Source: Actinomycetota bacterium
Lineage (GTDB): Bacteria; Actinomycetota; AC-67
DNA: 35,458 nucleotides
NCBI GenBank assembly: GCA_040905475.1
Contig: JBBDRM010000161.1
Location: 37,438-72,895, forward strand
Direction of reading: 5' to 3'
Shown here: positions 4,964 to 35,162 of the stretch, in pieces
Layout of the letters: every line of letters starts with the position of its first letter
Position numbering within the stretch: position 1 is the stretch's first letter
Notes under the pieces: model-generated
What the model saw: only the letters and a program-made list of their open reading frames with translations
What the model was told of the DNA's origin: nothing
The model's database searches: none
Made by a program: the position numbers and the translations under genes

Positions 4964-5620
4964 TTAACCCTTCAGGCTCTTCTGGTATGTCTTCCAGTCG
5001 TCCAGGAACCGCTTCAAACCGATGTCGGTGAGCGGGTGGTTGGTCAGCTTGGAGAACACGTCGTACGGCATCGTCGCGACGTCGGCCCCAACCTTCGCAG
5101 ATTCGACGACGTGCTGGGGGTGGCGGAGGCTGGCGGCCAGTACAAGCGTACGGTAGCCCTGCGTCCGGTATATCTCAACGATCTCGGCTAGCAGATTCAT
5201 CCCATCGTTCGCGATGTCGTCCACCCTTCCAAGGAAGGGGCTGATGTACGTGGCATCGGCCTCGGCGGCCAAGATGGCCTGCGTGGGTGAGAAACAAAGG
5301 GTCATGTTGGTTTTGATCCCGTGCCGTCCGAGCTCACGGACCGCGGCGAACCCGTCGGGGGTGACGGGGCACTTCACCACGATATTCGGCGCGATCTGAG
5401 AGAGCTTTAGTCCTTCTTCGACCATCCCGTCCCGGTCGGTGGATACGACCTCTCCGCTCACGGGCCCGTCGACCTCGGAAGCGATCTCCTTGAGATGCGT
5501 CTCGAAGTCCTTCTTCTCCTTGCCGATCAGCGTCGGGTTGGTGGTGATGCCGGAGAGCACGCCCCAGCGGTTGATCTCGCGGATCTCGTCCAAGTTCCCG
5601 GTGTCGAGCCAGAGCTTCAT
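4964..5620 (-). CDS. Transaldolase/fructose-6-phosphate aldolase, TalC/MipB family
   Basis: This 218-residue single-domain (beta/alpha)8 aldolase is the size of the short TalC/FSA subfamily, not of full-length transaldolase. The opening MKLWLDTGNLDEI, the GITTNPTL motif (24-31) and the Schiff-base lysine K83 in NIVVKCPVT define the family. SPFLGRVDDI and a C-terminal helix complete it. The reaction is either C3-unit transfer between sugar phosphates or aldol addition forming fructose 6-phosphate; sequence alone does not separate these. Its ATG overlaps the stop of the 2-phosphoglycerate kinase gene (ATGA), so the two are translationally coupled. This links sugar-phosphate exchange to the cDPG genes. 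Rho follows directly. Confidence 0.9.
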   Translation of the reverse strand: MKLWLDTGNLDEIREINRWGVLSGITTNPTLIGKEKKDFETHLKEIASEVDGPVSGEVVSTDRDGMVEEGLKLSQIAPNIVVKCPVTPDGFAAVRELGRHGIKTNMTLCFSPTQAILAAEADATYISPFLGRVDDIANDGMNLLAEIVEIYRTQGYRTLVLAASLRHPQHVVESAKVGADVATMPYDVFSKLTNHPLTDIGLKRFLDDWKTYQKSLKG

Positions 5621-6624
5621 ATCGCTCCCTCCTTCATGCCGCGAGCAGTCGGCGACGCCCCGCGTGTGATCGCACGCGGGCGCGCAGCAACCGGACGCGA
5701 GCTCGCGTCCTCCGTCGCCGTTGAGACGACGTGATCGATGACCGCCGCGAGTGCCGCATCAAGGTTGTAGTTCTGGATGATCGGAACGCCGTTCCGAAGT
5801 GCGAGCGAGCGTATGTACTTCTGTACCTTTCTGATGTTCCCGAAACTGTTGAGGTATCGCTCCTGTGGTCGCGCGCGCGTCTCGTGCGCGCGAACGTAGA
5901 AGTGCGACCGGTGAAGGTCCTCGTCGTCCACCGCGACGACCAGATCCACGATGACCGCTTCGCCTTCGGCGTCGGGACGTACGAAGCCGGGGACGACGTG
6001 CGCTCCTTCGATGATGACGTCGGTTCCTTCGGTGATCGCTCGTTCGATCAATGCCTTGATGCCGACCGCCACGGCCGAAACCTGCTCGCGGAACCCGACG
6101 ATGACCGCATCATCCGTCGCCGCGAGCGTCTCCTTCACGACCCCGTCGGCGTTGAACGAAGAGGTGTGGAGTGACGGCATGATGTCGGGCGACAGAACGC
6201 CCTTCATCACTTCCCGTATCGCATCGGTCGAGATGATGCGGACGATGCCGAGCCGCGCCGCCAATTGCGTCGCGATGGTCGACTTCCCCACGCCCGTCCC
6301 TCCGCCGATGAGGATGATCAACGGCACGTCGAGCTCGCTGACCGTCTGCCACCGCAGGAATGAGCGTGCGTACCGTTCGCCGGCTTCCCGACGGATGGTT
6401 TCCTCGGCGATCGTGCGAAGTTCCTCCGTCGTGACCGAGGCGCGCTCGGACTCCAACAGACGCTCTTCGATCACATGAGCGACGTGATAGGCGCGTGCCG
6501 GCGTCAGCCCGGCCGCCATGATCGTGTTGGCCATGAGACCTTTCGAGTACGGCAGCCCGTGCTCCCGGTCGCTGATGATGATCGACCGGGATGCGCCGTC
6601 CGCCGGCTTTTCGTGTCCCGTCAT
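5617..6624 (-). CDS. 2-phosphoglycerate kinase (cDPG pathway, first step)
   Basis: This 335-residue protein matches the archaeal 2-phosphoglycerate kinase layout. An ATP-cone-like N-terminal domain (about 14-95, with GLPYSKGLMANTI) is followed by a P-loop kinase domain with Walker A GGGTGVGKST at 107-116 and STDAIREVMKGV at about 132-143. IIEGAHVVPGF and HFYVRAHETRARP lie further on. Methanogen homologues phosphorylate 2-phosphoglycerate to 2,3-bisphosphoglycerate with ATP. A basic, probably disordered tail of about 30 residues ends the protein. Its ATG overlaps the cpgS stop (ATGA, 6621-6624) and its stop overlaps the aldolase start, so three genes are coupled. The adjacent cpgS supports this activity over a generic kinase; the substrate is nevertheless inferred. 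Confidence 0.85.
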   Translation of the reverse strand: MTGHEKPADGASRSIIISDREHGLPYSKGLMANTIMAAGLTPARAYHVAHVIEERLLESERASVTTEELRTIAEETIRREAGERYARSFLRWQTVSELDVPLIILIGGGTGVGKSTIATQLAARLGIVRIISTDAIREVMKGVLSPDIMPSLHTSSFNADGVVKETLAATDDAVIVGFREQVSAVAVGIKALIERAITEGTDVIIEGAHVVPGFVRPDAEGEAVIVDLVVAVDDEDLHRSHFYVRAHETRARPQERYLNSFGNIRKVQKYIRSLALRNGVPIIQNYNLDAALAAVIDHVVSTATEDASSRPVAARPRAITRGASPTARGMKEGAI

Positions 6625-7958
6625 GCCGTGTGAGCCTCGAATCTCCGTCGGGCGATCTCCGCCACGGTCACGAGCTCCGCCTCCAGATCCCCCTCGACGG
6701 AAACGGGGAGATTGTCTGCGAAGACCACTTCGGCGCCCGCGGCGCGCGCGACCGCAGCCGCTCCGTCCACCGCTCCGGCCTTGAGCTCCGTCACGAGCAC
6801 CTCGTACGTTCCTTCCGCCCCCGCGAGATCGGATGCGAGGGCGGCACGATCTGCCAGATGGTGCGTCATCCCCACGACACGCGCGCCGTGAGCCCCCTCC
6901 ACATGCGCCTTGATCACCTCACCGACGGCGGGAGGCGCGGTGGTTGCGTAGAAGACGGAGCGTCCGGCTATCGACCCGCGTGGGGTCGGGCGGAACACCG
7001 TCTTCACGCGCGCAACGCCTCGCGCCATTTCGTCGATCGAGGAAGTGAGGAGGGAGAGCGCGTGAGCCGAAACGGTGGGTTCGGAGGCCATTGTAATGGC
7101 CACCAGGTCCGCAAGCAATAGCCGGTATGGGCCGAGTGCCGAGGTCAGGACCTCGGGTGAAGCGCCGCCGGGGACCACCAGGACCGTTGCATCGGCCGCC
7201 ACCGGTGGGATCGCCGTGCCACTCCCCTCGAGCAGGATGATGTCCGGCCCGAGGGCGTTCGCAGCCTCGACGGCGGCCGCGACGGTGTCGAAGAACGGTG
7301 CGCCCGCGAGGCCGGCGCCCGCCCGTCGTGCTCCGACGCTTGCAACCCCGGCGAGCACCGCGTCCTCGTAGACGTCACTCGCGGCGTGCTCGCCGCGTCG
7401 TGCGAGCTCGATCAGCTCGTCGACCGTTGGAGGCATGGAGTCGCCGGCAACGACGCGCGGCTCAGCCGGGCCACCGCGCCCCATGGCAACGACCACCACT
7501 CGCATGCCGTGCGCGGTCAGAGTGCGCGCTGCGAATCCGGCGATCGCCGTCTTGCCGCAACGTTTGCCGGTACCGATGACCGCGATCGTCGGACGCGATG
7601 CGAGCCGCGGCCGGAGCGGAGCATCGAATCGGAAATCAGCGCCCTGGTAGCGAACTCCGTGGACGAGCGCGACGCTCGCGAGCAGGAAGCGCGATCGCGC
7701 GTCGACCACCGGATCGTCGGATAGGTCGAGACATACCTCCGGCGAGTACGAAGCGATCGCGTGCTCGAGCGCCTCGCGCTGCGTCGCACCGCGGATGATC
7801 GGGAGCGTGCCCAGCTCGAGTGGGCCGGAAAGCTTCTCGCCGCCGCCCAGGAAGACGCCGGCCACGATCTGATATCCCCGCTCCTCGAGGGCCTTGATCG
7901 CATCGACGATCACCGGCGGGTAGTGCTCGCCGTCGACGAGCACCAGCGCCCTCGTCAT
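6621..7958 (-). CDS. cpgS: Cyclic 2,3-diphosphoglycerate synthetase
   Basis: This 445-residue protein resembles archaeal cDPG synthetase, which closes 2,3-bisphosphoglycerate into its cyclic anhydride using ATP. The N-terminal LVLVDGEHYPPVIVDAI (6-22) is the family hallmark. A P-loop GTGKRCGKTAIAG at 129-141 lies in the central domain, followed by VVAMGRGGPAEPRVV and a DIILLEGSGTAIPPVA motif. The length is close to the methanogen enzyme (about 460). It starts 10 bp after the phosphodiesterase gene ends and overlaps the kinase gene that supplies its substrate. cDPG is known as an abundant solute and phosphagen-like compound in thermophilic methanogens. Its presence in this bacterium is inferred from the gene pair, not shown. 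Confidence 0.87.
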   Translation of the reverse strand: MTRALVLVDGEHYPPVIVDAIKALEERGYQIVAGVFLGGGEKLSGPLELGTLPIIRGATQREALEHAIASYSPEVCLDLSDDPVVDARSRFLLASVALVHGVRYQGADFRFDAPLRPRLASRPTIAVIGTGKRCGKTAIAGFAARTLTAHGMRVVVVAMGRGGPAEPRVVAGDSMPPTVDELIELARRGEHAASDVYEDAVLAGVASVGARRAGAGLAGAPFFDTVAAAVEAANALGPDIILLEGSGTAIPPVAADATVLVVPGGASPEVLTSALGPYRLLLADLVAITMASEPTVSAHALSLLTSSIDEMARGVARVKTVFRPTPRGSIAGRSVFYATTAPPAVGEVIKAHVEGAHGARVVGMTHHLADRAALASDLAGAEGTYEVLVTELKAGAVDGAAAVARAAGAEVVFADNLPVSVEGDLEAELVTVAEIARRRFEAHTA

Positions 7959-7968
7959 GCGCGGAGCA

Positions 7969-8757
7969 CTAGGAGCTCGGTTCGGGCTCGCGCACGACGT
8001 GCTCGATCTCGCGCTGGTACTGCTCGCCGGTCACGTAGTTGAAGTGCGCGATGACGTTCGCCGGTCCGAACGGATACTTGCGGCGGATCACCACGTCCGC
8101 GTCGGACACCTCGATGAGGTTGTAACAAGGCCGCGTGTTTCCGCGGAGGCGCAGGCTCGAGCAGGTTCCTGCGTTGGCGACGTACAGGTTCTCGAGGCGC
8201 CAGACGTACGGCACGTGCTTGTGTCCGGTGAGCGCCAGCCCGACGCCCGATCGGATCAAGAGCTCGAGGAGATCACCGGCGTCGTAGACGATGTTGCGCT
8301 CGCGTCCGGCGCCTGGGATCGGCAGCAGGTGATGATGCTGCACGTAGATCTTCAGCTCCGCGGGATCGGTGAACTGCTCGACCAGCCAGCCATACCGCTC
8401 GCGGCCGATCTGTCCGTGGTCCAGGTCGGGCTCGGATGAATCGGCTCCGACGATGACGACGCCCTTGGTCTCGACGCGCCAGTGGCGCGGGCCGATCATC
8501 TCCTCGAAGTGGACGTAGCCCACGTTGCGCGCGTCGTGGTTGCCGGGGACTGCCACGACCTTCGGACGCAGCTGCTGAAGGTATGCGGCGGCGGTCCTGT
8601 ACTCCTGCCGGAACCCTTCGTTGGTGAAGTCTCCCGTGCAGACGATGATGTCGGGGTTCAGCTCGTTCAGCTCGGTGATGACGCGGTTCATCAAGTTCGG
8701 CACGAAGTGAACCGAGCCGACGTGCATGTCCGAGATATGTGCGATGACGACGCCCAA
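7969..8757 (-). CDS. Calcineurin-like metallophosphoesterase
   Basis: This 262-residue cytosolic phosphoesterase has the full set of dinuclear metal motifs in order: SDMH (D10, H12), GDFTN (about 41-45), PGNHDAR (about 71-77), YVQHHH (about 138-143) and GHKH (about 178-181). No signal peptide is visible. The family includes cyclic-nucleotide phosphodiesterases (CpdA), lipid and protein phosphatases, so the substrate cannot be read from sequence. It lies 27 bp after the glycosidase gene and 10 bp before cpgS, inside the same unidirectional run. That location makes a cyclic phosphate ester or anhydride, possibly cDPG, a reasonable but untested substrate. GTG starts further upstream were not needed; the ATG at 8755-8757 follows a GGAG. 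Confidence 0.85.
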   Translation of the reverse strand: MGVVIAHISDMHVGSVHFVPNLMNRVITELNELNPDIIVCTGDFTNEGFRQEYRTAAAYLQQLRPKVVAVPGNHDARNVGYVHFEEMIGPRHWRVETKGVVIVGADSSEPDLDHGQIGRERYGWLVEQFTDPAELKIYVQHHHLLPIPGAGRERNIVYDAGDLLELLIRSGVGLALTGHKHVPYVWRLENLYVANAGTCSSLRLRGNTRPCYNLIEVSDADVVIRRKYPFGPANVIAHFNYVTGEQYQREIEHVVREPEPSS

Positions 8758-8784: not shown

Positions 8785-11025
8785 CTACTCTTCCATGATC
8801 ACCCGCACGGAGCCCACCTTGTTCAGGAGCGAGAAGCTCGTCGTCTCGCCTTCGCGCCGGAAGACCAGATGGAGAACGGAGTCTCCCACCCTGAGATTCT
8901 TCAGCTCCACCGTGTTGAGCCACGGCGGGAGCACCGGTGAGTTCACCGTCAGCAGGTTGTTGTGCGCCTGGGCCGACAAGCCGAGCATCGCCTGCAGGAG
9001 CAAGAACGGGGAGCCGGCAGCCCAGGCCTGCGGCGAGCAGGCGACCGGGTAGGACACGGGCCGGTTGGGCGTACGGCGCGTGAATCCGCAGAACAGCTCG
9101 GGCAAGCGCATGTAGTCCGAGTGATTCGCCGTCTCGAAGATCGCGGTCGCGATCCGGTTCGTCTGCTTGTGGAAGCCGTAGCGCTTCAGGCCCGCCGCGA
9201 TCAACGCGTTGTCGTGCGGCCATACCGAGCCGTTGTGGTAGCTCATCGGATTGTATGCGGCCGACGACTTCGACATCGTTCGGATCCCCCAGCCGGAGAA
9301 CATGTCGGGTTTGAGGAGCCGCGCGGCGACGTCGGGTGCCTTGTCCTCGTCGATCATCATGCAGTACAGCCCGTGTGCCGGGTTCGAGGTCACACTGGCG
9401 ACGGGACGCTTGTCGCCGTCGAGCGCGATCGCGTAGTACCGCTCGTCTTCGATCCAGAATGCTTCGTTGAATCGGCGTTTCAATTCGTCCGCTTGCCGCG
9501 TCAGCTCGGCGGCGCGGTCCTGGTCCCCGAGGGCCTCGAAGACGTCGGCCATCCGCGCCTTCGCGAGGAACACGTAGGCCTGCACCTCGGCGAGCGCGAT
9601 CGGCGGCTTCGCGAGCTGTCCGTCGATGTGGACCACGGAGTTGTGCGAGTCCTTCCACCCTTGGTTGTCGAGTCCTCGCGGCGAGCGTCGCTGGTACTCG
9701 ACGAAGCCGTCGCCGTCGAGATCGCCGTACTCGTCGATCCAGCGCAGCGCGCGCTCCGCGTGCGGGAGCATCTCCTGGAGGAACACGCGATCGCCGGTCC
9801 ATTTGAAGTAGGTCCCGAGCAGCATGAGGAACAACGGAGTGGCGTCGACGGAGCCATAGTACGGCGAGTGCGGGACGTAGAACGCGTTGGCTAACTCGCC
9901 GAGCCGGATCTCATGGAGGATCTTCCCTGGCTCTTCGTCGCGCCAGGGGTCGACCTCCGTCCCTTGATAGCGCGCGAGCAGTCGCAGCGAGTCGCGCGCC
10001 GGATCGGGGTTCAGCATCAGGATCTGATGGCTCGTCAGCAGCGCGTCGCGTCCGAACGCCGCGACGTACCAGGGGATCCCGGCCGCAAGGAACTTCCCTT
10101 GCCCGGTGTCGGTCAGGAGCGCACGGAGGTCTCGCTGACCGCGATGGAGCAGCGTGTTGAAGAGCTCGTTGTCCGTGTAGATCGAGGTGCAGGAGCGCTC
10201 CCATTCCTCATAGGAACGGCGCAGCTTGTGCACCGCCTCGTCGAACAGCATGGGCTCCCGCCGGTCCTCGCTGATGATCGGCTCGACGACGAACGTGAAC
10301 AGGCGCGTCTGGTGGCCGGCGAGTTCGACGGTGAACGACGCGCGAACGCGTCCCGAGTCGATGGTGACGTCATCGGGTTCGGCGCCGAGATCGACGCGCG
10401 TCTGGCGGAACACCCCGTCCTCGCCGTGGTACGCGAAGAGGATCACCCGGCCCTCCACCTTCGGATGGAAGAATTGGCCGCGCCGCTTCCGCCGCAGACC
10501 TCGCACCTCGAAGATGTCGGCGAAGTCGGCGCCGAACACCACTTCGACGGAGGCGCGGATCGGGTGCTCGTTGTAGTTCTTGAAGCGGATGCGTTCGAAG
10601 AGGCGATTGTCGATCACCCGGATCCGGCGGATGTTCAACGTCTGCTGCGGGACCGAGATCCGGTGGTCGTCCCAGATGTCGGGGTTGGTGCAGTCCACGT
10701 AGGACATGTAGGCGCGCTCGGCACTCGACGACAGCAGCACCGGCGGGCGCCCGTCGACCGTGAGCTCGTACTGCGAAAGGAAGCGGGTGTCCCGGTAATA
10801 CAGGCCCATCCCCTGATAGCCGCTCGCGAGGTCTCCCTCCTCGTTCGCGTACAGGAACATCTCGCCCTCTTTGGTGGCGAGGAGCCGTCCGGACTCCTCG
10901 GAAAGGACGGCCGGGACGCCTTCGTTCAGAACCCGGCTCGCAGCCTCAGGATCCAGCTCGAACTCTTCGCCGGAGGGGCTGCGGTAGAGATCGCTCGGGT
11001 CAAGATCTGCGGACTTCGCCAACAT
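8785..11025 (-). CDS. Amylo-alpha-1,6-glucosidase / glycogen-debranching-type glycosidase
   Basis: This is a 746-residue cytosolic protein with a beta-rich N-terminal debranching domain (about 40-265, including GLYYRDTRFLSQYEL) and a large (alpha/alpha)6 catalytic domain (about 285-680). The C-terminal part contains GIPWYVAAFGRDALLTS and LDNQGWKDSHNS, whose Asp/Glu residues fit inverting GH-type debranching enzymes; a short C-terminal beta domain follows. Family members hydrolyse alpha-1,6 branches, though some act on small glycosides, so glycogen is only the most likely substrate. It begins 67 bp after thrB and heads the cluster inserted between thrB and rho. The ATG at 11023-11025 follows a GGGAG. 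Debranched glucose could feed the triose-phosphate pool used by the downstream cDPG genes. Confidence 0.82.
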   Translation of the reverse strand: MLAKSADLDPSDLYRSPSGEEFELDPEAASRVLNEGVPAVLSEESGRLLATKEGEMFLYANEEGDLASGYQGMGLYYRDTRFLSQYELTVDGRPPVLLSSSAERAYMSYVDCTNPDIWDDHRISVPQQTLNIRRIRVIDNRLFERIRFKNYNEHPIRASVEVVFGADFADIFEVRGLRRKRRGQFFHPKVEGRVILFAYHGEDGVFRQTRVDLGAEPDDVTIDSGRVRASFTVELAGHQTRLFTFVVEPIISEDRREPMLFDEAVHKLRRSYEEWERSCTSIYTDNELFNTLLHRGQRDLRALLTDTGQGKFLAAGIPWYVAAFGRDALLTSHQILMLNPDPARDSLRLLARYQGTEVDPWRDEEPGKILHEIRLGELANAFYVPHSPYYGSVDATPLFLMLLGTYFKWTGDRVFLQEMLPHAERALRWIDEYGDLDGDGFVEYQRRSPRGLDNQGWKDSHNSVVHIDGQLAKPPIALAEVQAYVFLAKARMADVFEALGDQDRAAELTRQADELKRRFNEAFWIEDERYYAIALDGDKRPVASVTSNPAHGLYCMMIDEDKAPDVAARLLKPDMFSGWGIRTMSKSSAAYNPMSYHNGSVWPHDNALIAAGLKRYGFHKQTNRIATAIFETANHSDYMRLPELFCGFTRRTPNRPVSYPVACSPQAWAAGSPFLLLQAMLGLSAQAHNNLLTVNSPVLPPWLNTVELKNLRVGDSVLHLVFRREGETTSFSLLNKVGSVRVIMEE

Positions 11026-33691: not shown

Positions 33692-33985
33692 ATGCGATCG
33701 GTGAGTGATTGGGCGCGGTCCACTGCGCGGAAAAGCGACGTCTCGATCCTTGGATCGAGAGCGCGGTGGGGACGCGTCGGCTACGCCGGCTCAGCGTTCG
33801 CGCCCGCGCCCGGCACCTACCAAGGTGTCGACGGCGGACGCGCTCGGCTGACAACCGTTCACGATTCCGGCCGTGCCCGATCGGTGAAGGCTCCGATCGC
33901 GAACCTCTACCCGTTGATCGCGGCCGCCCTCTACGAAGTGGCGTTCGCGAGCGAGGCGGGGCCGCTCGCCACCTGGCTCAACTAG
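33692..33985 (+). CDS. Small hypothetical protein
   Basis: This 97-residue protein shows no family I recognise. It starts MRSVSDWARS, has a Gly/Arg-rich middle and ends with a hydrophobic, possibly amphipathic helix (APIANLYPLIAAALYEVAFA, about 67-86). Third codon positions are strongly G/C in the second half, and AAAGGTGG precedes the ATG, supporting a real gene. The stop overlaps that of the ferritin-VIT1 gene in CTAG. The frame continues upstream to 33425 over the dehydrogenase gene, but that part is antisense noise. Confidence 0.5.
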   Translation: MRSVSDWARSTARKSDVSILGSRARWGRVGYAGSAFAPAPGTYQGVDGGRARLTTVHDSGRARSVKAPIANLYPLIAAALYEVAFASEAGPLATWLN

Positions 33986-35106
33986 TTGACGTTGACGCCG
34001 ATGAGGCGTCCGACCGCGTAGGTTGCTCCGGCGGACATCGCGCCGATCAGCAGCATGCGTGCGCCGTTGCGCAGCGCCGACCTTCCCGTGAAAACAGATA
34101 TCGCCGCTCCGACCCCGAGAAGCAGAGCCGCAGATAACCCAGCGGCAACCATCAGCGCCGCCGCACCCGAGCCGATGATGAACGGGATCACCGGGACGAA
34201 CGCGCCGAGGGCGAACGCGGCGAACGACGATCCCGACGCGGTCCACGGTGAGACGAGATCCGACGGATCGATCCCCAGCTCCTCGCGCACCAGCGTGTCG
34301 AGCGCCGTTTCGGGCCGACTCATCAGCCTCGCGGCGAGCGCCTCAGCTTCGTCCCGGTCGACGCCCTTCGCGCGGTAGATGAGCGCGAGCTCCTCACGCT
34401 CCTCCTCCGGGAAATGCGTGAGCTCGTCGCGTTCCATCTGGATCTCGCGCTCGTAGAGCTCCCGCTGCGACTTGACCGAGATCCACTCCCCCGTCGCCAT
34501 GGAGAACGCCCCGGCGACGAGCCCTGCGACACCGGCCAAGAGCACGAAGCGCGAATCACCCTGCGTCCCCCCGGCGACGCCCATCACCAAGGAGAGGTTC
34601 GACACGAGCCCGTCGTTGAACCCGAACACGCCTGCCCGCAACGCTCCCGCCGCGCCGACGCGGTGGCGGCCCTCGGCGCGGGCGATCCGGGCACCGGTCG
34701 GCCCTCCGACGAGTGCCGACACGGTCTTGCCGTGCGAACGTTCTTGTCGCGCCATCGAGTCCGGCGCCTCGGCGATGTCCTCGTACTTGGCGGCGTCGGC
34801 CGCCTCGAGGCGAAGCACCAGGGGCAGGATCGCGTCGGCGCCGAAACGACGTGCAAGCATCGAGAGAACGCGGACACGGAACGGGAGCCGGGGCCTTCGC
34901 GGCTCCGTCATCCCGCGCTCCGCCATGAGCTTCGCCCAGTGCGCGGCGTGACGCTCCTCGGCGTCGGCGAGCTCCATCAGGATCTCCCGACGGTTCTCGC
35001 CGGCCCGCTCCGCGAGCGCCCGGTACAGCGCGGCCCCGGCGAGCTCGTCCGCCCAGAGCTCCCAGAAGCGAGCCACCTCGGGATCGGTGCGTTCGGAGGT
35101 TCGCAT
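33982..35106 (-). CDS. Ferritin-like/VIT1 membrane metal transporter (MbfA-type)
   Basis: This protein of about 374 residues combines a rubrerythrin-like N-terminal domain (about 8-140) with a VIT1/CCC1 transporter (about 150-374). The first domain carries Glu and ExxH ligands (DELAGAALYRALAE, ADAEERHAAHW, EAADAAKYEDIAE, RQERSHG). The second has GVFGFNDGLVSNLSLVMGVA, then MATGEWISVKSQRELYEREI and three C-terminal membrane helices. This layout matches MbfA-type iron (or manganese) exporters, where the ferritin domain gathers the metal. The ATG at 35104-35106 follows GGAG; the GTG just upstream is an alternative. Confidence 0.88.
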   Translation of the reverse strand: MRTSERTDPEVARFWELWADELAGAALYRALAERAGENRREILMELADAEERHAAHWAKLMAERGMTEPRRPRLPFRVRVLSMLARRFGADAILPLVLRLEAADAAKYEDIAEAPDSMARQERSHGKTVSALVGGPTGARIARAEGRHRVGAAGALRAGVFGFNDGLVSNLSLVMGVAGGTQGDSRFVLLAGVAGLVAGAFSMATGEWISVKSQRELYEREIQMERDELTHFPEEEREELALIYRAKGVDRDEAEALAARLMSRPETALDTLVREELGIDPSDLVSPWTASGSSFAAFALGAFVPVIPFIIGSGAAALMVAAGLSAALLLGVGAAISVFTGRSALRNGARMLLIGAMSAGATYAVGRLIGVNVN

Positions 35107-35162
35107 CACGTCTCCACCCTATCGCGGGCGAGCGGCCGCGCCGCGGTTCGCAAACGCTCGGG

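What the first reader, a model, noticed from the sequence alone, without database searches (positions are those of the whole stretch)
5617..7958. Complete cyclic 2,3-diphosphoglycerate (cDPG) synthesis operon in an actinomycete-type bacterium
Both enzymes of the archaeal pathway are adjacent and translationally coupled: cDPG synthetase (LVDGEHYPPV hallmark, P-loop at 129-137) followed through ATGA by 2-phosphoglycerate kinase (ATP-cone-like domain plus P-loop at 107-116), itself coupled through ATGA to a TalC-type aldolase. Established knowledge: in Methanothermus and relatives these two enzymes turn 2-phosphoglycerate into cDPG, a thermoprotectant and phosphate store. Inference: this bacterium makes cDPG, perhaps as a stress solute or phosphagen. 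I know of no characterised bacterial pathway.
Basis: partly seen in the sequence, partly recalled or inferred. Interest (0 to 1): 0.85.

Follow-up and report, generated by a model that had tools for sequence, protein, structure and literature searches.

The report
Bacterial cDPG synthesis operon plus phosphoesterase
A bacterium of the Actinomycetota carries, in one operon, the two enzymes that heat-loving archaea use to make the unusual protective phosphate compound cDPG, next to a phosphoesterase that probably breaks it down, and relatives of the operon are widespread in that phylum although cDPG has been reported only from hot-living methanogens.

Summary
ORF 6621-7958 (-) is a full-length cyclic 2,3-diphosphoglycerate synthetase homologue (41% identical to the crystallised Methanothermus fervidus enzyme, E 1e-99), with all substrate-binding residues conserved. 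It overlaps by ATGA a 2-phosphoglycerate kinase homologue (5617-6624), which overlaps talC by ATGA. It is not unique: cDPGS was found in 156 of 297 sampled genomes of the window's phylum, 2PGK is adjacent in 66 of 71 loci, and Actinomycetota form one clade in both trees, so the module looks old there. New here: the calcineurin-like phosphoesterase directly upstream (7969-8757) belongs to the module. It is in 20/21 genomes with cDPGS and 0/20 without; in 8/8 distant genomes its best match lies beside cDPGS, as a tandem duplicate preceded by a CBS-domain gene; haloarchaea have a PHP protein there. I propose a make-and-break cDPG module, with the phosphoesterase as candidate cDPG hydrolase or 2,3-DPG phosphatase. 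[quoted passage not shown] TalC looks like a bystander.

The parts
6621..7958 (-). [quoted passage not shown]
   Evidence: phmmer to 8oru/8ork (M. fervidus cDPGS) E 1.6e-99 and 9sxb E 5.6e-85; ligand residues conserved
7551..7577 (-). cDPGS P-loop GTGKRCGKT (residues 128-136), with the substrate-contacting Lys131/Arg132 (= M. fervidus K145/R146)
   Evidence: alignment; roles from PMC10690619
5617..6624 (-). 2-phosphoglycerate kinase (2PGK) homologue, 335 aa
   Evidence: NCBIfam PRK04220 315 bits, E 4e-94 (below the equivalog cut-off of 343); 30-62% identity to 2PGKs adjacent to cDPGS elsewhere
6277..6306 (-). 2PGK P-loop GGGTGVGKST (residues 107-116)
   Evidence: alignment A2
6346..6552 (-). 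N-terminal ATP-cone domain of 2PGK (residues 25-93)
   Evidence: PF03477 31.4 bits, above cut-off
7969..8757 (-). calcineurin-like metallophosphoesterase (MPE), candidate cDPG hydrolase / 2,3-DPG phosphatase
   Evidence: PF00149 E 1e-19; co-occurs with cDPGS 20/21 vs 0/20; best genome-wide match beside cDPGS in 8/8 distant genomes; model closest to Rv0805 and GpdQ
4964..5620 (-). talC-type fructose-6-phosphate aldolase/transaldolase; overlaps 2PGK by ATGA; probably a neighbour rather than part of the pathway
   Evidence: TIGR00875 288 bits above cut-off; beside cDPGS-2PGK only in some actinobacterial loci
8785..11025 (-). GDE_N_bis / MGH1-like glycoside hydrolase (glycogen-debranching-type), 27 bp upstream of MPE; frequent actinobacterial neighbour, role in the module unknown
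   Evidence: PF14742 E 2e-55, PF22422 E 7e-22; co-located in several loci

Best explanation
The locus is a make-and-break module for cyclic 2,3-diphosphoglycerate. 2PGK phosphorylates 2-phosphoglycerate to 2,3-diphosphoglycerate. cDPGS then uses ATP to activate one phosphate, and attack by the other closes the intramolecular phosphoanhydride ring of cDPG. The linked metallophosphoesterase opens cDPG and/or dephosphorylates 2,3-DPG, returning phosphoglycerate and phosphate to central metabolism. Shown by sequence here: identity and adjacency of the two synthesis genes, conservation of the catalytic and substrate-binding residues, and the evolutionary linkage of the phosphoesterase. Inferred: that the enzymes are active on these substrates in this bacterium, the reaction of the phosphoesterase, and the physiological role (phosphate or energy store, osmolyte, or antioxidant).
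For: cDPGS: full-length match to the M. fervidus crystal structure, E 1.6e-99; 41% identity. Ten published ligand or catalytic positions (E45, K46, K145, R146, K149, T150, D208, T353, E404, K406) are identical in the window protein, and nine of them in all 73 sequences aligned (T353 in 71) (roles from PMC10690619). 2PGK: PRK04220 E 4e-94 against E 6e-23 for mevalonate-3-phosphate 5-kinase. Adjacent in 66 of 71 loci with a long cDPGS match, and 2PGK in 21/21 genomes with cDPGS vs 1/20 without (Fisher p 8e-11). MPE: in 20/21 vs 0/20 (17 within about 1 kb of cDPGS); best genome-wide match beside cDPGS in 8/8 distant genomes; operon cDPGS-2PGK-CBS-MPE in archaea and other phyla. Phosphoglycerate mutase apgM, which supplies 2PG, sits in the cluster in L037 and L091. 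Own genome has a cofactor-independent PGM over its cut-off.
Against: No biochemistry exists for any bacterial homologue that I could find. The 2PGK score is below NCBI's equivalog cut-off (315 vs 343 bits). One ADP-contacting position differs (E305 to Ser; variable across the family, Asp in 9sxb). [quoted passage not shown] 23 of 59 loci with room on both sides lack MPE beside cDPGS; three genomes have only a paralogue elsewhere and one has none. M. fervidus and Methanothermobacter genomes could not be reached, so whether proven producers carry MPE is unknown.
Confidence: 0.7

Rival explanations
1. The enzymes are true cDPGS and 2PGK but make cDPG as a low-level regulatory or signalling metabolite with fast turnover, not as a bulk solute. 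The phosphoesterase (and the CBS adenylate-sensor protein in archaea) would set its level, as synthases and phosphodiesterases do for cyclic nucleotides.
For: Dedicated synthase plus phosphoesterase pairing; CBS protein in the archaeal operons; nearest folds of MPE are the cyclic-nucleotide phosphodiesterase Rv0805 and GpdQ; cDPG never detected in Thermococcales that carry the gene.
Against: cDPG reaches 0.3-1.1 M in the methanogens where it is known; no receptor is known; the known chemistry fits storage equally well.
Confidence: 0.25
2. The bacterial enzymes use a related but different bisphosphate (not 2,3-DPG), so the product is a new cyclic pyrophosphate.
For: 41% identity only; 2PGK-family relatives have changed substrate before (mevalonate-3-phosphate 5-kinase is a named relative); one adenosine-side residue differs.
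Against: The residues reported to hold or shield 2,3-DPG and its phosphates (E45, K145, R146, K149, T150, D208, K406) are invariant in all 73 sequences, archaeal and bacterial; apgM lies in the cluster in L037 and L091.
Confidence: 0.1
3. The 2PGK serves to make 2,3-DPG as the priming cofactor of a cofactor-dependent phosphoglycerate mutase, and cDPGS/MPE buffer that pool.
For: 2,3-DPG is the known cofactor of dPGM (general knowledge); the 2PGK family also rings in Thermus and Deinobacterium control genomes.
Against: The window's genome has a cofactor-independent apgM over its cut-off; its only histidine-phosphatase-family gene is of the MSMEG_4193 type, far below the dPGM cut-offs.
Confidence: 0.04
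4. The phosphoesterase is an unrelated housekeeping enzyme kept near cDPGS by the conserved thrB-rho gene neighbourhood, not by function.
For: Actinobacterial loci share a larger syntenic block with rho, and 23/59 loci lack MPE beside cDPGS.
Against: The same MPE family lies beside cDPGS in Thermococcus, Thermoplasmata, Aminicenantes, Cloacimonadota and Mcinerneyibacterium, in unrelated surroundings and a different gene order, and no close match exists in 20/20 actinobacterial genomes without cDPGS.
Confidence: 0.15

Closest known systems
cDPGS of Methanothermus fervidus (Mfer_0077; PDB 8ork, 8oru; PMC10690619)
   Same: Full-length homology, 41% identity, same N-terminal domain and P-loop, same substrate, Mg and phosphate-binding residues
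   Different: Actinomycetota clade separate from the archaeal/other clade (99% SH-aLRT); E305 replaced by Ser; host not a methanogen
2-phosphoglycerate kinase family (NCBIfam PRK04220; M. fervidus 2PGK)
   Same: ATP-cone plus P-loop kinase, E 4e-94; conserved motifs shared with the Thermococcus and Thermoplasmata copies next to cDPGS
   Different: Below the curated equivalog cut-off (315 vs 343 bits); 30-37% identity to the archaeal and other non-actinobacterial copies with named origin
cDPGS/2PGK gene pair of Thermococcales (Pyrococcus yayanosii PYCH_14390-400, PMC4890121)
   Same: Adjacent cDPGS and 2PGK; MPE and CBS genes nearby in Thermococcus loci read here
   Different: MPE and CBS convergent on the opposite strand and MPE duplicated in tandem; cDPG never detected there (PMC7511516)
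Metal-dependent phosphodiesterases Rv0805 and GpdQ (PDB 3ib7, 2hy1, 3d03)
   Same: Predicted fold and the metal-site motifs of the calcineurin-like superfamily
   Different: Only 20-26% identity in the structural match; a separate subfamily tied to cDPGS; no known substrate

Membership tests
cDPGS (cyclic 2,3-diphosphoglycerate synthetase) | Full-length two-domain similarity to characterised M. fervidus cDPGS | tested here: met
   Residues 3-437 aligned, E 1.6e-99
cDPGS (cyclic 2,3-diphosphoglycerate synthetase) | P-loop with K145/R146 and K149/T150, Mg ligand D208, E45 from the partner subunit, E404/K406 | tested here: met
   All identical in the window protein and in all 73 aligned sequences
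cDPGS (cyclic 2,3-diphosphoglycerate synthetase) | Adenosine-side contacts E305 and T353 | tested here: inconclusive
   T353 conserved; E305 is Ser in the window, variable in the family
cDPGS (cyclic 2,3-diphosphoglycerate synthetase) | Makes cDPG from 2,3-DPG and ATP | not testable with these tools
   Needs an enzyme assay
2-phosphoglycerate kinase (PRK04220) | Profile match above the curated equivalog cut-off | tested here: not met
   315.4 bits against a cut-off of 343; the Thermococcus neighbour of cDPGS reaches 379.5. So it works like a 2PGK by context, but NCBI's own threshold would not name it one
2-phosphoglycerate kinase (PRK04220) | ATP-cone domain followed by a P-loop kinase domain, best family match 2PGK rather than mevalonate-3-phosphate 5-kinase | tested here: met
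   PF03477 above cut-off; PRK04220 315 bits vs PRK12339 81 bits
2-phosphoglycerate kinase (PRK04220) | Phosphorylates 2-phosphoglycerate to 2,3-diphosphoglycerate | not testable with these tools
   Needs an enzyme assay
Complete cDPG pathway | Both synthesis genes present and linked | tested here: met
   ATGA overlap in the window; 66/71 loci adjacent
Complete cDPG pathway | cDPG present in the cells | not testable with these tools
   Needs 31P NMR or LC-MS of cells
cDPG hydrolase / 2,3-DPG phosphatase (hydrolase activity described in Methanothermobacter, PMC1224877; gene not known to me) | Metal-dependent phosphoesterase genetically tied to cDPGS | tested here: met
   superfamily motifs invariant in 27 sequences
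cDPG hydrolase / 2,3-DPG phosphatase (hydrolase activity described in Methanothermobacter, PMC1224877; gene not known to me) | Hydrolyses cDPG or 2,3-DPG | not testable with these tools
   Needs an enzyme assay
cDPG hydrolase / 2,3-DPG phosphatase (hydrolase activity described in Methanothermobacter, PMC1224877; gene not known to me) | Present in the proven cDPG producers | not tested

The most novel reading that the evidence does not exclude
cDPG is not a speciality of hyperthermophilic methanogens but an ancient metabolite of much of the Actinomycetota and several other bacterial and archaeal phyla, handled by a conserved synthase-phosphoesterase module (with a CBS adenylate sensor in many archaea) that works as a regulated phosphate/energy store or signal. 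The upstream phosphoesterase is the missing cDPG-degrading enzyme.
Probability: 0.4. Interest if true: 0.85.

Novelty: new variant of a known kind. Interest (0 to 1): 0.63.

Why it matters
If true, a metabolite regarded for decades as exclusive to a few hot-living methanogens is made by a large part of one of the major bacterial phyla, where nothing seen here points to thermoprotection. That reopens what cDPG is for and offers other hosts in which to ask. The linked phosphoesterase supplies a concrete gene candidate for the cDPG-degrading activity described biochemically in Methanothermobacter, and the enzymes are candidates for making cDPG, a sought-after protectant, at moderate temperature.

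Tried and rejected
talC as a pathway gene: rejected as part of the core, because it follows 2PGK only in some actinobacterial loci, next to rho, and is not beside cDPGS in the archaeal loci read. 2PGK as source of the dPGM cofactor: rejected for this genome. 2PGK as mevalonate-3-phosphate 5-kinase: rejected on score. Recent transfer from archaea: not supported; Actinomycetota are one side of a single branch in the cDPGS, 2PGK and MPE trees (quick trees, SH-aLRT only). apgM-like genes upstream of cDPGS in Acidimicrobiia loci: they match at only about 27%, and I take them for the alternative homoserine kinase of the thr cluster, not for a pathway gene (inference). IVYWREL growth-temperature estimate (about 54 C): discarded as unreliable from 11 genes of a GC-rich genome. 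Reaching Methanobacteria through the phylum of the Thermococcus locus gave no identifiable methanogen. Literature searches for a bacterial cDPG pathway found none; the library holds open-licence papers only.
Full report
OBSERVATION. On the minus strand, 6621-7958 encodes 445 aa beginning MTRALVLVDGEHYPPV and 5617-6624 encodes 335 aa; talC is 4964-5620. The junctions cDPGS/2PGK and 2PGK/talC are both 4-base overlaps. Upstream the same strand continues with a metallophosphoesterase (7969-8757, 10 bp gap) and a glycogen-debranching-type enzyme (8785-11025, 27 bp gap), then the thr genes; downstream comes rho.

IDENTITY OF cDPGS. No Pfam or NCBIfam family covers it above cut-off, but it aligns over residues 3-437 with the crystallised Methanothermus fervidus enzyme (8oru/8ork, E 1.6e-99) and with a second deposited cDPGS (9sxb, E 5.6e-85). 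Identity on the multiple alignment is 41% to M. fervidus. The structure paper names the residues that bind 2,3-DPG, ADP and Mg and those that shield the phosphates (PMC10690619). Ten of the twelve positions I tested are matched as published and identical in the window protein: E45, K46, K145, R146, K149, T150, D208, T353, E404 and K406; nine of these are invariant in all 73 aligned sequences and T353 is present in 71. E305 is Ser here, and it varies across the family (Asp in 9sxb). The paper's P335 is Phe in the deposited chain by my numbering, and is Phe in the window too. Substrate-side chemistry is therefore conserved.

IDENTITY OF 2PGK. Best NCBIfam match is 2-phosphoglycerate kinase PRK04220 (315 bits, E 4e-94), below the curated equivalog cut-off of 343; the mevalonate-3-phosphate 5-kinase relative scores only 81 bits. 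It has the N-terminal ATP-cone and the P-loop at 107-116. The Thermococcus protein that lies beside cDPGS passes the same cut-off (379.5 bits) and aligns throughout with the window protein at 36%. I could not obtain the M. fervidus 2PGK sequence itself.

DISTRIBUTION AND LINKAGE. A scan of one-genome-per-species contigs returned 78 loci, mostly Actinomycetota of several classes, plus Thermoplasmata, haloarchaea, Thermococcus, Altiarchaeota, Cloacimonadota, Neomarinimicrobiota, Aminicenantes, Omnitrophota and Mcinerneyibacterium. Of 71 loci with a long cDPGS match, 66 have 2PGK adjacent, and three of the five exceptions (L001, L058, L062) are cut by the contig end. In an even sample of the window's own phylum, 156 of 297 genomes have cDPGS. 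I then compared 21 genomes with cDPGS (the window's included) and 20 without: 2PGK is in 21/21 against 1/20 (Fisher p 8e-11; the genomes are related, so the p-value overstates independence). In quick maximum-likelihood trees Actinomycetota are one side of a single branch for cDPGS (99%), 2PGK (100%) and MPE (100%), so long-standing inheritance within the phylum is favoured over recent import from archaea.

THE THIRD GENE. A match above 200 bits occurs in 20 of the 21 cDPGS-bearing genomes, within about 1 kb of cDPGS in 17 of them, and in none of the 20 genomes without cDPGS, where the best match is 58 bits (positions). In three genomes of one family the match is a 44% paralogue elsewhere, and one genome has none. 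Searching 14 distant genomes with the window's protein, the best match in every one of the eight genomes that carry this family (archaeal and bacterial) is the gene beside cDPGS, at E 1e-41 to 1e-59; unrelated phosphoesterases there reach E 3e-7 at best, the only strong second locus being in the Aminicenantes genome G005 (E 5e-34) (with the coordinates). In those organisms the protein is about 500 aa and consists of two tandem phosphoesterase units, and it is preceded by a small two-CBS-domain protein: cDPGS-2PGK-CBS-MPE in Thermoplasmata, Cloacimonadota, Aminicenantes, Mcinerneyibacterium and L090; CBS-MPE convergent to cDPGS-2PGK in Thermococcus; cDPGS-apgM-CBS-MPE in L091. Two haloarchaeal genomes searched lack MPE, and haloarchaeal loci have a PHP-domain protein after 2PGK instead, which looks like a replacement of one phosphoesterase by another. 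Omnitrophota L037 has 2PGK-cDPGS-phosphoglycerate mutase-CBS, which ties the cluster to 2-phosphoglycerate. The predicted MPE structure (mean pLDDT 88.9) is closest to Rv0805 and GpdQ, metal-dependent phosphodiesterases, and the superfamily's metal motifs are invariant across 27 sequences.

MECHANISM. From published biochemistry of the archaeal enzymes (PMC10690619; [quoted passage not shown] I infer that the MPE (or PHP) gene supplies that opening and/or the 2,3-DPG phosphatase step, and that the CBS protein senses adenylates. The window's genome has a cofactor-independent phosphoglycerate mutase (PRK04135, 531 bits, over its cut-off); its single histidine-phosphatase-family gene is of the MSMEG_4193 type. 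2,3-DPG is thus not needed there as a mutase cofactor, which removes the most ordinary alternative purpose for 2PGK.

ROLE. This is the weak point. Recent papers describe cDPG as exclusive to hyperthermophilic methanogens, at 0.3-1.1 M. Thermococcales carry the gene almost universally (71/81 genomes of that phylum sample), yet cDPG has never been detected in them; the synthase responds to pressure stress (PMC7511516; PMC4890121). So carrying the genes does not by itself mean bulk accumulation, and the Actinomycetota may use cDPG as a regulated store or a low-level signal. Thermoprotection is not indicated by anything found here.

LIMITS. No bacterial enzyme has been assayed to my knowledge. 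The literature library holds open-licence papers only. The proven producers' genomes could not be searched for MPE and CBS. Trees were quick searches without bootstrap. Databases may already name many of these genes by homology; what I did not find described is the bacterial breadth as a pathway and the phosphoesterase/CBS partners.

VERDICT. The finding is real and correctly read as a cDPG synthesis operon, probably active as such; it is common rather than singular. The more useful discovery is the linked phosphoesterase, a concrete, testable candidate for cDPG turnover.

Noticed in passing
L024:6233-8180, L032:6232-8169, L043:6218-8147, L045:6233-8171, L049:6237-8172, L053:6245-8165, L060:6224-8159, L066:6158-8070, L090:114-2082, L091:413-2321: Archaeal and non-actinobacterial cDPG loci carry a small two-CBS-domain protein followed by a tandem-duplicated metallophosphoesterase; candidate regulator and hydrolase of cDPG.
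   Followed up: partly
L041:6239-7018, L047:6439-7233, L051:5023-5802: Haloarchaeal cDPGS-2PGK pairs are followed by a PHP-domain protein in place of the metallophosphoesterase, an apparent non-orthologous replacement.
   Followed up: partly
window 8785-11025: GDE_N_bis / MGH1-like glycoside hydrolase directly upstream of the phosphoesterase, also present in many relatives (L016, L035, L065, L070 and others); its substrate could be a glycosylglycerate or glycogen, which would link it to glycerate metabolism.
   Followed up: no
L088:4343-5281 (G025) and G040: In one actinobacterial family (f11) the 2PGK is divergent (36%) and lies far from cDPGS; in G040 the match contains in-frame stop codons.
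   Followed up: no
L044:4001-6246: A Streptomyces (WAC 01529) with a long-branched cDPGS-2PGK pair and no adjacent phosphoesterase; a named strain that may be handy for tests.
   Followed up: no
window 33982-35109: ORF combining a rubrerythrin-like N-terminus with a VIT1-family transporter domain.
   Followed up: no
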